Positions 10,633 to 17,190 of a DNA stretch of 37,039 bases are shown piece by piece (position 1 is the stretch's first letter; each line of letters begins with the position of its first letter). The notes under the pieces were generated by a model, which was not told the origin of the DNA, made no database searches, and was given only the letters and a program-made list of their open reading frames with translations. This DNA is from Dichelobacter nodosus (GTDB lineage: Bacteria > Pseudomonadota > Gammaproteobacteria > Beggiatoales > Beggiatoaceae), in the NCBI GenBank assembly GCA_020720085.1, contig DYPE01000013.1:1-37039 (forward strand), read 5' to 3'. Both the position numbers and the translations under genes were made by a program.

Positions 10633-11382
10633 CTAACGCGCACGGCGGTTGCGCCAATGGGCAATTTGCGCATAGCCCATCACAGTCATGATCGGAAACA
10701 GGCAGGCAAACGCGATGAGGCCAAAGCCATCTACCAGCGCACTGCGGCCAGGCACATTGGCAGCCAGACCCAAACCCAACGCTGCGACCAGCGGCACTGT
10801 GACCGTAGACGTGGTGACCCCGCCGGAATCATAGGCCAGCGGGATAATTACGCGCGGCGCGTAATACGTTTGCACAATGACAATGGTATAGCACGCCATC
10901 AGCGCATAGGCGATGGGCACGCCAGTCACAATGCGCAACACACCCACCGTAATGCCCACGCCCACGCCCAACGCAGCCGCAATGCGCAGCCCCCACACCG
11001 TGATGGTGCCGCCGGAAATTTGGTTGGCTTTCAGCGCGACGGCCAGCAGCGAAGGCTCGGCAATGGCAGTAGAAAATCCCAGCATAAAGGCAAATACATA
11101 GACCCAGGCATAGGCGTACCAATGGCCCGCTGCCGCGCCTGCGGGTAAAAACGCTGGGCTGGTTAATTGTTCCGCCATCAGCCGACCAATAGGAAATAGC
11201 GCCTGATCCAAGCCCTGTAAAAACAACGCCAACCCCACAATGACATAGCCAAATCCCACCAGCGTGCGGCCCAAATGGGGAATCGGACGGCGGATAATCA
11301 GCCATTGAAAGCCCACAATGGCCAGCACAATGGGCAACACATCCCAGCAGGTTTGCCATAGTGTGTGCAAAAAAGCAATCAT
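10633..11382 (-). CDS. DUF1538 integral membrane protein, second of a pair
   Basis: A 249-residue membrane protein with about six or seven hydrophobic helices and the DUF1538 hallmarks [24 protein letters not shown], split here as [10 protein letters not shown] and LFPIGRLMA, plus [11 protein letters not shown] and [19 protein letters not shown]. The DSGG-x-TTS-x-[IT]-VP loop is shared with its neighbour. The family is predicted to be a transporter, substrate unknown. Translation is coupled to the upstream paralogue by ATGA at 11379-11382. It converges on dnaA with only 36 bases between and no clear terminator. Confidence 0.85.
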
Positions 11383-12119
11383 AGGCCATGCACCGCCATA
11401 CCAAATACCATCACAAATAGAATCGGCACCAGTGAAGCCAGCGCAATCAGGCCAAAGCCATCCATCATCGGATTACGGCCATGCAGGCTAGAAGCCAGTC
11501 CCACACCCAACGCAGTCACCAGCGGCACCGTGATGGTAGAAGTGGTCACGCCGCCAGAATCATACGCCAAGCCGAGAATTTCACGCGGCACAAAGAAAGA
11601 CAGCAGCGTGGCGCACACATAACCGCCAATCATCAAAAAATGCACGGGCCAACCATGCACAATACGCAACACGCCCAACACAATCGCCACGCCCACGGCC
11701 AATGCCACAGTCAAACGCAGGCCCGTGGCATAGTCGGCTTGTGCTGCATCGCTGGCCGCAATAGCGCCGCTTTGCGCCGCAGTTTTAGCCGCAGCATTGG
11801 CCACTGCAATCAAGGCTGGCTCTGCCACCGTGGTGCCAAATCCCAAACAAAAGGCGAACACCAACAGCCACGCCAAACTGCCCTTGCGCGCAAAGGCATA
11901 CGCCATGTTTTCCCCCAAAGGAAATAGGCCCATTTCCAAACCACGCACAAACAGCGCCAGCCCCAGCACCACCAAAACCATGCCACCCACTAAATTCGCC
12001 ACATCCGGCAACGGCTGGCGCAACACCACCCCTTGAAAAAATACCAGCAGTACAACAATGGGCAACAAATTTTTTACGCTGTCTAAAAAAGCCAGCGCCA
12101 GTAACATGAGTTGTTTCAT
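11379..12119 (-). CDS. DUF1538 integral membrane protein, first of a pair
   Basis: A 246-residue paralogue of the next gene, with the same order of elements: [36 protein letters not shown], then [18 protein letters not shown] and a glycine-rich final helix. In many bacteria these two halves occur as one gene or as an adjacent pair, so they probably form a heteromeric transporter in the inner membrane. A divergent promoter region of 71 bases separates it from the aspartic protease gene. Confidence 0.85.
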
Positions 12120-12810: not shown

Positions 12811-14630
12811 CTACGGGTTGGTGGTCGCATACACCATGTCGCTGACGAAGCGCCTGAACGATTCATTTTCGACAAACTGCTTATAAACCTGCGTGTCGTC
12901 TTTCAGCAGGTGCTGCATCACTTTGGTTAGCGCCTGGTCGTGCGCCATGCGTGCGGTGTGGGGCGTGTTCTCCTTACCGCCTTGATCCCTGAGAGCGGCT
13001 CGTCGTAGCCGGTCTGAAACTTATCAGCGACGATCAGGAAGCGGTACGGGTCGGTCTGGATTTTGGCCGCGATCTCGCTGCTTGAAAATCCATTGAGCGA
13101 AGCCTCGCTCACTTTCGCGCCGTTGTATTCGTGTTCGCCGGAGAAAGCGACAATGGCCTGGTACGGGCTTTTGCGCTCCAGCAGATAGGCTTTGCAGGCG
13201 TGAAAATACTGAATGGCTCGCTCTATGCCGCTGCTGACCACCATCGCCCGCGCCTGACCGCCGATCTTGACGCTCGCCAACACCTGCTCGTGGAAGTGGT
13301 CTACCATAATCTCGGCCTTGAGCCGAATCGCGTGATCGTGGCTTTCCACATAGCGGCGCAGCTTCTTCTTGGCCTTTTTAGTATCAAACTCCGGGTCGTC
13401 TTCGGTCTTCTTGACCAGTTTGTAATAGCTGTCCACCGGGGTATAAGCCTTGAGTACATCGAGAATAAACCCCTCTTCGATGGCCTGCTTCATGGTGTAA
13501 CTGTGGAAGGGCCGATGCTTGACCTTACCCTCGGCGTCGGGCGGCAGTGGCTCGCCGAACATCTCCAGGGTTTTGTTCTTGGGCGTGGCGGTGAAGGCAA
13601 AGTAGCTGGCATTGGTCAACATCTTACGCGCTGCCATGCGCTTTTCGAGGGTGGCGTTTACCGTGTCCTCGGGGTCTGGCCCCTCGTCTTCTTCCTCTTG
13701 TTGACCAGCGGGGCCGAGCGCCTGACTCATTGCCGCCGAGGTCTTGCCGCCCTGGCTGGAGTGCGCCTCGTCAATGAGAATGGCGAAGGTCTTGCCGCCC
13801 ACAGCGGCGATTTCGTCAAGGATGAAAGGGAACTTCTGCACCGTCGAGACGATAATCTTCTTGCCTTGCTCAATGAAGCGGCGCAGGTCGCCAGAGCGTT
13901 CAGCATGGCCCACGGTCGCGCCCACCTGCATAAACTGCTTGATAGTCGCTTGAATCTGGCTGTCAAGGATGCGCCGGTCAGTGACTACGATCACCGAATC
14001 AAACACTTCCTGGTCGTCGCGCTGGAGGCCGATAAGCTGATGCGCCAGCCAAGCGATAGAGTTCGACTTGCCGCTGCCCGCCGAGTGCTGGATCAGGTAG
14101 CGCCGCCCCGCGCCCTGCTCGCGCACGTCGGTCAGCGCCTGGCGGACAAGGCTCAACTGATGGTAACGCGGCCACACTTGCCGGCGCTTCTTCTTGCCGG
14201 TGTGCGGGTCTTTTTCCTCAACGACCTGGGCGTAGTTTTCCAGGATGTTGATCAGCCCCGCCGGGGTGAGCACCTTTTTCCACAGATAGTCAGTCTTGAG
14301 GCCGTGCGGGTTGGGCGGATTGCCCGCGCCGTCCTGGTAGCCCTGATTAAAGGGCAAGAACCACGAACCTTTGCCGCGTAACTCGGTACACATCCGCACT
14401 TCGCTGTCGTCCACCGCGAAATGTACCGCGCAGCGCCCGAACTCAAACAAGCGCTCGCGTGGGTCGCGGTCGCGCTGGTACTGCTGGACGGCATCCTCGA
14501 CCGTCTGCTTGGTGAGGCTGTTCTTTAGCTCGAACGTAGCGATGGGCAAGCCGTCCGCCGTGTAGCCGCCGCCGGTCATGTGCCGCATGATCAGGGTTTC
14601 CAGGCCCTTCTCGCTGGTGTCGGTGGTCAT
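12811..14630 (-). pseudogene. hsdR: Type I restriction subunit HsdR remnant with multiple deletions
   Basis: Intact HsdR is a translocase-nuclease of about 1000 residues. Here the motor part survives (Walker A QHSAGSGKSNS at 181-191, DEAH at 287-290, AFTATPKNKT, ADKFQTGYDEPL) but three parts are missing. First, residues 1-24 (MTTDTSEKGLETLIMRHMTG...) join directly to GLPIATFELKN, dropping about 130 residues with the start of the nuclease fold. Second, DEPL joins SGIKAV, losing the LHTMYVDK-type stretch between two PL copies. Third, after GIKAV the sequence changes frame and resumes only at the extreme C-terminus (KENTPHTARMAHDQ ... MVYATTNP, TAG at 12811), dropping some 300 residues. The main frame ends at 12927. 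The start overlaps the preceding gene by ATGA. Confidence 0.9.
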
Positions 14631-14650
14631 TGGGGTTCCCTTTTAGAAGA

Positions 14651-14700
14651 GTCGGACTTGTCGGACTTGTCGGACTCGTCCGACCTATCCGACCTGTCCG
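14651..14700. repeat. 9-bp tandem repeat coding for an SDKSD tail
   Basis: Five to six copies of a 9-base unit, first GTCGGACTT (x2), then GTCGGACTC, GTCCGACCT and ATCCGACCT. On the minus strand they encode the charged tail DRSDRSDESDKSDKSD after the zinc ribbon. Units of nine keep the frame, so copy number could vary without breaking the gene. Confidence 0.85.
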
Positions 14701-14847
14701 CTTTCCAGAGCATCATACCCCTACATTCGGGGTAGCCGGTGCAGCCCCAGAAGGGCTGTCCGGCGTGACTGCCTTTTTTTGCTATGCACCGGCGCATGGG
14801 TTTGCCGCACTCCGGGCAGGCCGGCGCATCGGCGTGCGCCGCCCCAT

Positions 14848-14936
14848 CTCTCGCCCGCACCCGCGCGGCGTACAGAATTTACTGGTGAGCAGCTTACACT
14901 TTTCACAGCTCTCGCCCGCACCCGCGCGGCGTACAG
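14848..14936. repeat. Two 28-bp direct repeats bracketing a 33-bp insert
   Basis: The same 28 bases, beginning CTCTCGCCCGCACCC and ending GGCGTACAG, lie at 14848-14875 and 14909-14936, identical, with 33 AT-richer bases between. Both copies encode NLYAARVRAR on the minus strand. The total gain over a single copy is 61 bases, which is the frameshift in the four-helix-bundle gene. Confidence 0.92.
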
Positions 14937-15499
14937 GTTTTCCGTGAAACCGCCGTTTTCGAGAAAAGCGCGTCCTTGCTGCTCGCAGAGGCAGCGTAGC
15001 AGATAAGCCGCTTGGTTTACCGCGCACAGCATCGCGTTGGCCGCCAGTTCCGGTTCGGCTTTGGCGACGAACTGCGCCAGCCCCGCCAACCCTGTCAGGC
15101 GTACCGCGCCGGGCTTGGCGGGCGGCAGATCGGGCACGGTGTCGTGTTTCAAGCGCTCGCGCATCGCCAGCGCCTCGGGCGATTCCTTGTGCCAAACCCG
15201 CAGCCCGCGCTGGACCAGGAAGCTTTTGTAGTCTTTGAGCAATTCGTCGTTGAGGCTGGCGCGGGCGACGTTGGTCAGCTTGATTTCGGTTTTTTTTGAG
15301 GTGGCCGCCGCGCCGCTACCCTCAGAAATGTTGCGAACCCCGCTGCGCGCCGCCTGTACCATTTGGTCGTGGGTGCGCGAGCGTTTGTCAATGAAGCGGT
15401 CGCAGAATACCACGGTCGCGTCGTACACGGCCTCGGCTACGGCATAGGCGCGCAGTTTTTCATAGCCGCCGTGGGGCAGTAAAACGCTTTTGTCGCTGC

Positions 15500-16687
15500 T
15501 CATGGTGTTTGATCCACCCTGGCAAACTGGGTAAACAGCGCATCGCCAAACTCATCCACAAGCGCGGCGCGAATCTCCTCGTCGCCGGAGGCGAAGCGCA
15601 ACGATTCTATGGCTTTGCGGGTGAGTTGACTGTGCAAGCGCAGCGGGCGTTCCACCGTGACTTTCCAGTAACCGAAAGCGGCATTGGCAAAGATTTTCGA
15701 CTCAGGGGTTTCCTGAAAATCCAGGAACACGCGGCTGATGCGTGCGATGTCCTCTGGCGATAGCTCGCAGTTCTTCTTGCCCAGGTTCTTGCGCAGCGGT
15801 TTGAACCACTGGCTGGCATCGATGAGTTGCACCCGGCCTTGGCGGTGCGCGGGTTTCTTATTGGACAACACCCAGATATAGGTGGCGATGCCGGTGTTGT
15901 AAAACAGATTGAGCGGCAGCGCGACAATCGCCTCCAGCCAGTCGTTTTCGATCAGCCAGCGGCGGATGTTGCTCTCGCCCTGGCCGGCGTCGCCGGTGAA
16001 TAGCGACGAGCCATTGTGAACTTCGGCGACGCGGCTGCCCAGCGCCGACTTGCGGTTCATCTTCGCCGCCATGTTGGCGAGAAACAGCATTTGCCCGTCA
16101 CTGGAGCGGGTGACCAGGGAAAGTTCCTCGCCCTGGTGCATGACCTTAAAGCGCGGATCGCGCATCCCGTCCTTGCCGCCCATTGCCTCCAGGTCTTTCT
16201 TCCAACTCTTGCCATAAGGCGGATTGGCAAGCATGAAATCGAACTCTTGCGCGGGGAAGGCGTCGTGCGCCAGCGTAGACCACTCCGCGCCGCCGACGAT
16301 GTGATCGGCGCTGTCGCCTTCGCCCTTGAGCAGCATGTCCGCTTTGCACACGGCGTAGGTCTCGGGGTTAATCTCCTGGCCGTAGAGCAGACACCGAACC
16401 TGCTGGCCGCGCTGGGCGGCAATCGCGGCGAGGGTTTCCTCGGCGACGGTGAGCATACCGCCAGTGCCGCAGGCGCAGTCGTAAAGCAAATAAGTGCCGG
16501 ACTTGATCGTGCTCTCGATGGGCAAAAACACCAAGTTCGCCATCAGCCGCACGGCATCGCGCGGCGTCCAGTGCTCGCCCGCCTCCTCGTTGTTATCCTC
16601 ATTGAACTTGCGCACCAATTGAGCGGCAACGGCCTTGCTGACTTCGGATTTCTCGGCAACCGTGCTGACCAATTCGGCTTTGTTCAT
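15500..16687 (-). CDS. hsdM: Truncated HsdM methylase fused to an HU-like N-terminus
   Basis: HsdM is the N6-adenine methylase subunit of type I RM systems. Residues 24-395 are its catalytic core: FNEDNNEEAGEHWTPRDAV, SAM motif DCACGTGG (70-77; usual form D-x-A-C-G-T-G-G), and NPPYGKSWKK (motif IV, NPPY at 155-158). The normal helical N-terminal domain of some 150 residues is absent. In its place residues 1-23 read MNKAELVSTVAEKSEVSKAV, the usual opening of HU DNA-binding proteins. The C-terminal part after FGDALFTQFA is also missing (395 residues against about 500-800). The start is ATG 16687 with AGGG upstream. Activity is doubtful because the target subunit gene hsdS is absent. Confidence 0.85.
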   Translation of the reverse strand: MNKAELVSTVAEKSEVSKAVAAQLVRKFNEDNNEEAGEHWTPRDAVRLMANLVFLPIESTIKSGTYLLYDCACGTGGMLTVAEETLAAIAAQRGQQVRCLLYGQEINPETYAVCKADMLLKGEGDSADHIVGGAEWSTLAHDAFPAQEFDFMLANPPYGKSWKKDLEAMGGKDGMRDPRFKVMHQGEELSLVTRSSDGQMLFLANMAAKMNRKSALGSRVAEVHNGSSLFTGDAGQGESNIRRWLIENDWLEAIVALPLNLFYNTGIATYIWVLSNKKPAHRQGRVQLIDASQWFKPLRKNLGKKNCELSPEDIARISRVFLDFQETPESKIFANAAFGYWKVTVERPLRLHSQLTRKAIESLRFASGDEEIRAALVDEFGDALFTQFARVDQTP

Positions 16688-16708
16688 GTGCATCATCCCT
16701 GTTCAGTT

Positions 16709-16820
16709 AAATGCGAATGAAGAGCTAAAGAATTTCAGGTTTTTGCTCACTTGCAAAGTGAGGTTTTTAAAATATTGATTTTATTGATACAAGAATTTTT
16801 AGCTCTTAATTCGCATTTAA
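16709..16820. repeat. 112-bp element with 23-bp near-perfect inverted ends
   Basis: The left arm starts TTAAATGCGAAT (16709) and runs through AAGAGCTAAA; the right arm (to 16820) is its reverse complement with one mismatch in the first 23 bases. The AT-rich middle holds a small hairpin. It lies directly upstream of the chimeric hsdM and next to a transposase remnant, so it may be a miniature inverted-repeat element or a promoter/operator region of the lost HU gene. Confidence 0.8.
16746..16768 (+). terminator. Small hairpin followed by T run
   Basis: CTCACTT, loop GCA, AAGTGAG (16746-16762), then GTTTTT. This has the shape of an intrinsic terminator on the plus strand, but no plus-strand gene precedes it, so it may only be part of the 112-bp palindromic element. 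Confidence 0.3.
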
Positions 16821-16872
16821 ACTCTGCATCATGTCAAAAAATACTGACAAAATCTATGGCGGAAAAGAAAAC

Positions 16873-17056
16873 CAGGGCAATCGCACTACAATGCAGGGTT
16901 CAACAACGCCATTAACTTACCCAGGTAACGATGGTTCCAGTCGGCTTGTTTTCGTTTGGCGGTTATCCCGCACTTGAGGGATTTTTCCTGCTTTAACAAA
17001 TTCAACGCGATATGGCGGACTACCGCCAAGTTTTCCGCCGCATAGCCTTTTCTGGA
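16873..17056 (-). mobile_element. ISAs1-type transposase C-terminal remnant and IS end
   Basis: The minus-strand frame SRKGYAAENLAVVRHIALNL, continuing LKQEKSLKCGI and AKRKQADW, matches the conserved C-terminus of ISAs1-family transposases. Nothing upstream of residue RKG is recognisable, so most of the gene, including the first catalytic residues, is gone. Right after the stop comes CAGGGCAATCGCACTACA (16873-16890), which looks like the terminal inverted repeat of such elements. The other end is missing; the fragment is immobile. Confidence 0.75.
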
Positions 17057-17190
17057 AGGTTGGCTTGCATCGGGCATCTCATGTAACACGTTGTTTTTAG
17101 ATAGGATGCATGAAATTAAACTGGAATGCTGATTGTAGTGAGATTGCACTGCAACGTGCCCGCGCGCTGCGAATCTGTTACTATTTTGAC

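What the first reader, a model, noticed from the sequence alone, without database searches (positions are those of the whole stretch)
15500..16687. HsdM with an HU-like N-terminus and no HsdM N-domain
Residues 1-23 (MNKAELVSTVAEKSEVSKAV...) look like the first helix-turn of HU proteins, and from FNEDNNEEAGEHW the protein is HsdM from mid-sequence. The normal ~150-residue helical domain is missing. A deletion seems to have joined the start of an HU gene to the methylase core in frame, giving it HU expression signals. This could be a dead fragment or a domain-swapped methylase.
Basis: partly seen in the sequence, partly recalled or inferred. Interest (0 to 1): 0.72.

Follow-up and report, generated by a model that had tools for sequence, protein, structure and literature searches.

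The report
Decayed restriction operon fused to HU
A deletion has joined the first 22 codons of a lost DNA-packing (HU) gene to the middle of a bacterial defence methylase gene, but the methylase has lost both its ends and the rest of its operon is full of holes, so this is an ordinary genomic wreck and not a new enzyme.

Summary
The 398-aa ORF at 15500-16696 (-) starts with about 22 HU residues and continues in frame as HsdM. A blind search with the first 23 residues finds HU genes, aligned from their start codons. The HsdM part aligns only from residue 23-26. Intact relatives (about 770 aa) show that the C-terminal ~230 residues are missing as well as the N-terminal ~165. hsdS is gone except perhaps its last codons. 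The next gene is frameshifted by a 61-bp duplication. hsdR has four deletions (about 57, 366, 30 and 742 bp), removing the nuclease region and part of its C-terminal half. The missing pieces are not elsewhere in the assembly. Upstream lie a MITE-like repeat ending ~19 bp before the HU start codon and a 277-bp ISAs1 remnant. "HU expression signals" are therefore not supported, nor is a domain swap: only HU helix 1 and the start of helix 2 are present. No relative examined has this N-terminus. One oddity: the surviving codons look conserved, so the deletions are recent. Verdict: a decaying type I RM island, low interest.

The parts
16620..16687 (-). HU leader: first 22-23 codons of an HU-family gene (MNKAELVSTVAEKSEVSKAVAA), joined in frame to hsdM
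   Evidence: blind 23-aa search gives HU genes aligned from their start codons; Pfam PF00216 E=0.005
15512..16619 (-). HsdM catalytic core only (about residues 168-537 of the 767-aa relative L046), SAM motif CACGTGG and NPPY intact; N-terminal ~165 and C-terminal ~230 residues missing
15500..15514 (-). junction of the hsdM core to what look like the last codons of hsdS (DQTP, stop overlapping the next ATG); about 3.2 kb missing relative to L030
14721..15503 (-). four-helix-bundle/suffix-domain gene of the RM operon (TIGR04258); C-terminal zinc ribbon frameshifted by a 61-bp duplication
14845..14941 (-). near-identical 36-bp copies spaced 61 bp: duplication that shifts the zinc-ribbon frame (14627-14860)
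12927..14630 (-). hsdR remnant ORF: about 57-bp and 366-bp deletions at 14575-14554 remove most of the nuclease domain; 30-bp deletion at ~13000-12992 between AGCCGCT repeats; 742-bp deletion at ~12975 shifts the frame
12817..12981 (-). out-of-frame tail of hsdR (about residues 951-1005 of L046 HsdR)
16707..16820 (.). MITE-like repeat with 23-bp terminal inverted repeats; related copies on contigs C123, C42, C54, C125
16874..17150 (-). ISAs1-family insertion sequence remnant, 277 bp, both terminal inverted repeats kept, most of the transposase deleted

Best explanation
This is a decaying type I restriction-modification island in a draft genome. It once held hsdM, hsdS, a four-helix/zinc-ribbon gene and hsdR, with an HU gene, an ISAs1-type IS and a MITE-like element beside or inside it. 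A series of deletions, at least one of them between short direct repeats, removed most functional parts. One of them fused the first 22 codons of the neighbouring HU gene to hsdM codon ~168 in frame. The open frame is a by-product: the product, if made, would be a bare MTase core without the regions that pair with HsdS and clamp DNA. Shown: HU origin of the leader, loss of both HsdM ends, loss of hsdS, holes in hsdR, IS and MITE remnants. Inferred: that deletion produced the holes, the order of events, and that the product is inactive.
For: HU hits for the leader. Core-only alignment to about 80 relatives of ~770 aa. Gapped collinearity of 16620-12829 with intact operons L046, L048, L037 and L030. 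HsdR reads MTG/GYTA/DGLPIATFELKN where relatives have ~140 further residues of nuclease domain. 30-bp deletion between AGCCGCT repeats. Frameshift in the operon's four-helix gene. Missing parts absent elsewhere in the genome; the only hsdS found is in a different type I locus on C34. ISAs1 remnant and MITE-like element directly upstream.
Against: The surviving codons show no decay: the HsdM core departs at 0 of 157 columns invariant in 80 relatives, and HsdR at 2 of 250, within the range of relatives. Either the deletions are recent or some selection remains. The junction into hsdM and those within the nuclease region are in frame. No reads were available to verify the junctions.
Confidence: 0.9

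Rival explanations
1. The fused ORF is a functional domain-swapped or orphan methylase, with the HU leader acting as a new N-terminus or expression leader.
For: The frame is open across the join, the catalytic motifs are intact and the core is fully conserved. AGGG lies 9 nt before the HU ATG.
Against: No C-terminal third, no hsdS of its own, only HU residues 1-22 (no DNA-binding arms), MITE-like element in place of the promoter region, no relatives with the same architecture. Type I HsdM needs HsdS for target recognition (established knowledge).
Confidence: 0.04
2. Assembly or amplification artefact: the joins at ~16620, ~15512, ~14570, ~13000 and ~12975 do not exist in the organism.
For: Draft genome of 170 contigs (87% complete); many deletions with no accompanying point decay is unusual.
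Against: Six or more separate junctions; where a shared repeat can be read it is only about 7-8 bp, too short for k-mer misjoins; missing pieces are not on other contigs; the damage includes a duplication, IS and MITE remnants, as in real decay; Pfam matches of flanking genes look largely complete.
Confidence: 0.05
3. The HU resemblance is chance and the leader is random upstream sequence.
For: Single-model Pfam match is weak (E=0.005, below cut-off); no DNA-level donor in the genome or family.
Against: Unbiased searches return HU genes, aligned from the HU start codon, at up to 68% identity.
Confidence: 0.02

Closest known systems
Type I RM HsdM of the class I SAM-dependent MTase kind (PADLOC PDLC03029; relatives L028-L107)
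   Same: Core residues 23-394 are up to about 91% identical, with the same catalytic motifs
   Different: N-terminal ~165 and C-terminal ~230 residues absent; first 22 residues from HU
HU family DNA-binding protein (PF00216)
   Same: First 22 residues: helix 1, turn and start of helix 2
   Different: The remaining ~68 residues, including the dimer core and DNA-binding arms, are absent
Decayed type I RM loci / pseudogenes
   Same: Multiple deletions, frameshift, loss of subunits, IS and MITE debris
   Different: Surviving sequence shows little substitutional decay, so the deletions look recent

Membership tests
Type I RM methyltransferase subunit HsdM | N6-adenine MTase catalytic core with SAM and NPPY motifs | tested here: met
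   PF02384 E=4e-49; motifs intact; no deviation at 157 invariant columns
Type I RM methyltransferase subunit HsdM | N-terminal helical domain (~165 aa) | tested here: not met
   alignment starts at query 22-26 = relative ~166
Type I RM methyltransferase subunit HsdM | C-terminal region of ~230 aa | tested here: not met
   alignment ends at query 394 = relative ~536 of 767
Type I RM system | cognate hsdS | tested here: not met
   hsdS is replaced by a junction; the only hsdS found is in a separate locus on C34
Type I RM system | intact HsdR nuclease and motor | tested here: not met
   nuclease deletions, frameshift and loss of about residues 688-950
HU family protein | full ~90-aa domain with DNA-binding arms | tested here: not met
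   only profile positions 1-30 matched, 22 residues by alignment
HU family protein | HU start MNK.EL(V/I)..(V/I)A aligned at the start codon | tested here: met

The most novel reading that the evidence does not exclude
The HU-HsdM core is retained as a stand-alone, expressed protein with a new role (for example an orphan methylase borrowing the HsdS of the second type I locus on contig C34), which would explain why its codons show no decay.
Probability: 0.03. Interest if true: 0.55.

Novelty: already known. Interest (0 to 1): 0.13.

Why it matters
It mainly matters as a caution. An open, conserved methylase ORF with a tidy N-terminus would be annotated as a functional gene, yet it is a doubly truncated fusion in a ruined operon. 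It is also a clear snapshot of recent decay by deletion in a defence island, with relatives close enough to place the deletions to within a few bases.

Tried and rejected
(1) HU donor in the same genome: three HU/IHF genes found (C34, C95, C48), none similar at DNA level, and no DNA donor in 43 same-family genomes; the hit with the best E-value in the plasmid set is an Azonexus plasmid HU next to an integrase. (2) Other HsdMs with this N-terminus: none in relatives or viral contigs; the one hit reaching residue 7 (L155) has the normal N-domain. (3) Missing pieces elsewhere in the assembly: not found. (4) RNA element in the island: none. (5) Relaxed selection in the remnant: no signal found. 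(7) One literature search gave nothing on this fusion (titles and abstracts only were looked at).

Full report
Observation. On the minus strand an open frame of 398 codons runs 16696-15500. Its first residues are MMH-MNKAELVSTVAEKSEVSKAVAAQLVRKFNEDNNEEAGEHW. The MNK start is at 16687. The leader gives only a weak Pfam HU match (residues 4-33 to profile 1-30, E=0.005, below cut-off), so I tested it blindly. The 23-aa leader alone against 370 genomes hit 83 genomes, aligned from query residue 1 to 21-23. 18 of the 19 other loci read out are HU genes matched at their start codon (one unresolved). Against plasmids and phages the functionally annotated hits listed are HU or DNA-binding proteins. 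The leader is the start of an HU gene.

HsdM part. About 80 named-genome relatives (81-91% identical) mostly have HsdMs of about 770-800 aa. The window protein aligns from residue 22-26 to about 394, i.e. relative residues ~166-537. Both ends are missing: N-terminal ~165 and C-terminal ~230 residues. DNA identity starts at about 16620 and stops at about 15515. Nearly all of the 80 loci have more than 140 codons of open frame upstream of the match (L034 and L092 are shorter, partial frames), and all 31 viral-contig relatives have the normal ...DNHxMG(T/S)(I/V/M)FEEL(V/I)R sequence at the join. No family sharing the HU start was found.

Operon. Relatives read hsdM, (an optional extra gene), hsdS, (four-helix gene in L030 and L107), hsdR (the hsdS and extra-gene labels are from ORF position and sequence, not a family search). 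The window is collinear with them but full of holes. After hsdM residue ~394 it jumps to what look like the last codons of hsdS (DQTP-stop overlapping the next ATG, compare EDAP-stop in L030), removing about 3.2 kb relative to L030. The four-helix/suffix gene (TIGR04258) carries a 61-bp duplication that throws its zinc ribbon out of frame. hsdR begins normally (MTTDTSEKGLETLIMRHMTG), then about 57 bp and 366 bp are missing, leaving GGYTADGLPIATFELKN and removing most of the nuclease domain. At ~13000 a 30-bp stretch between two AGCCGCT repeats is gone (compare L070). At ~12975 about 742 bp are gone and the frame shifts; the last ~55 residues of hsdR survive out of frame. None of the missing parts of hsdM or hsdR is elsewhere in the 87%-complete assembly. 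The genome has another type I locus on contig C34 with its own hsdM and hsdS.

Upstream. A MITE-like element with 23-bp inverted repeats occupies 16707-16820, with relatives on four other contigs. Its edge is about 19 bp from the HU start codon, so the HU promoter is not next to the fused ORF, and no sigma-70-like site was found in 16600-17100. Beyond it, 16874-17150 is a 277-bp ISAs1-family remnant with both terminal repeats and only the transposase tail. Pfam matches of the flanking chromosomal genes look largely complete.

Mechanism. A deletion from codon 22 of an HU gene to codon ~168 of hsdM, one of at least six in this island, is the simplest account (inference). The donor HU gene was not found at DNA level in this genome or family, so it was probably itself an accessory gene, like the Azonexus plasmid HU beside an integrase. 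The product would be a bare catalytic core; from established knowledge of type I enzymes it lacks the parts that bind HsdS and close on DNA. Twenty-two HU residues are not a DNA-binding domain.

What remains odd. The surviving codons have not decayed: 0 of 157 invariant HsdM columns and 2 of 250 HsdR columns differ, within the range of intact relatives. The deletions are therefore recent relative to substitution, or the process is strongly biased to deletions. This keeps a small probability for retained function and for an assembly problem, but six-plus junctions, shared repeats of only about 7-8 bp where they can be read, a duplication and IS debris make an artefact unlikely.

Verdict. The finding is real and well read at its 5' end. 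It is an ordinary remnant of a type I RM island, not a domain-swapped methylase with HU expression.

Noticed in passing
window 16707-16820: MITE-like element, 23-bp terminal inverted repeats (TTAAATGCGAATNAAGAGCTAAA), with related copies on contigs C123, C42, C54 and C125 of the same genome.
   Followed up: partly
window 16874-17150: ISAs1-family IS remnant of 277 bp that keeps both terminal inverted repeats but has lost most of its transposase; other fragments are on C37, C128, C121 and C155, several with stop codons.
   Followed up: partly
window 12817-16620: At least six deletions within about 4 kb while the remaining codons show no excess substitutions; a deletion-biased decay pattern that is not fully explained.
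   Followed up: partly
window 14845-14941: 61-bp duplication in the four-helix-bundle suffix gene, with 36-bp near-identical copies.
   Followed up: partly
G000 contig C34:24872-36900 (L001, L005, L186): A hupB gene and a second type I RM locus (hsdM and hsdS) lie within 12 kb on one contig; no DNA similarity of this hupB to the HU leader was found.
   Followed up: no
window 10633-12119: Two adjacent DUF1538 genes of similar length in tandem.
   Followed up: no
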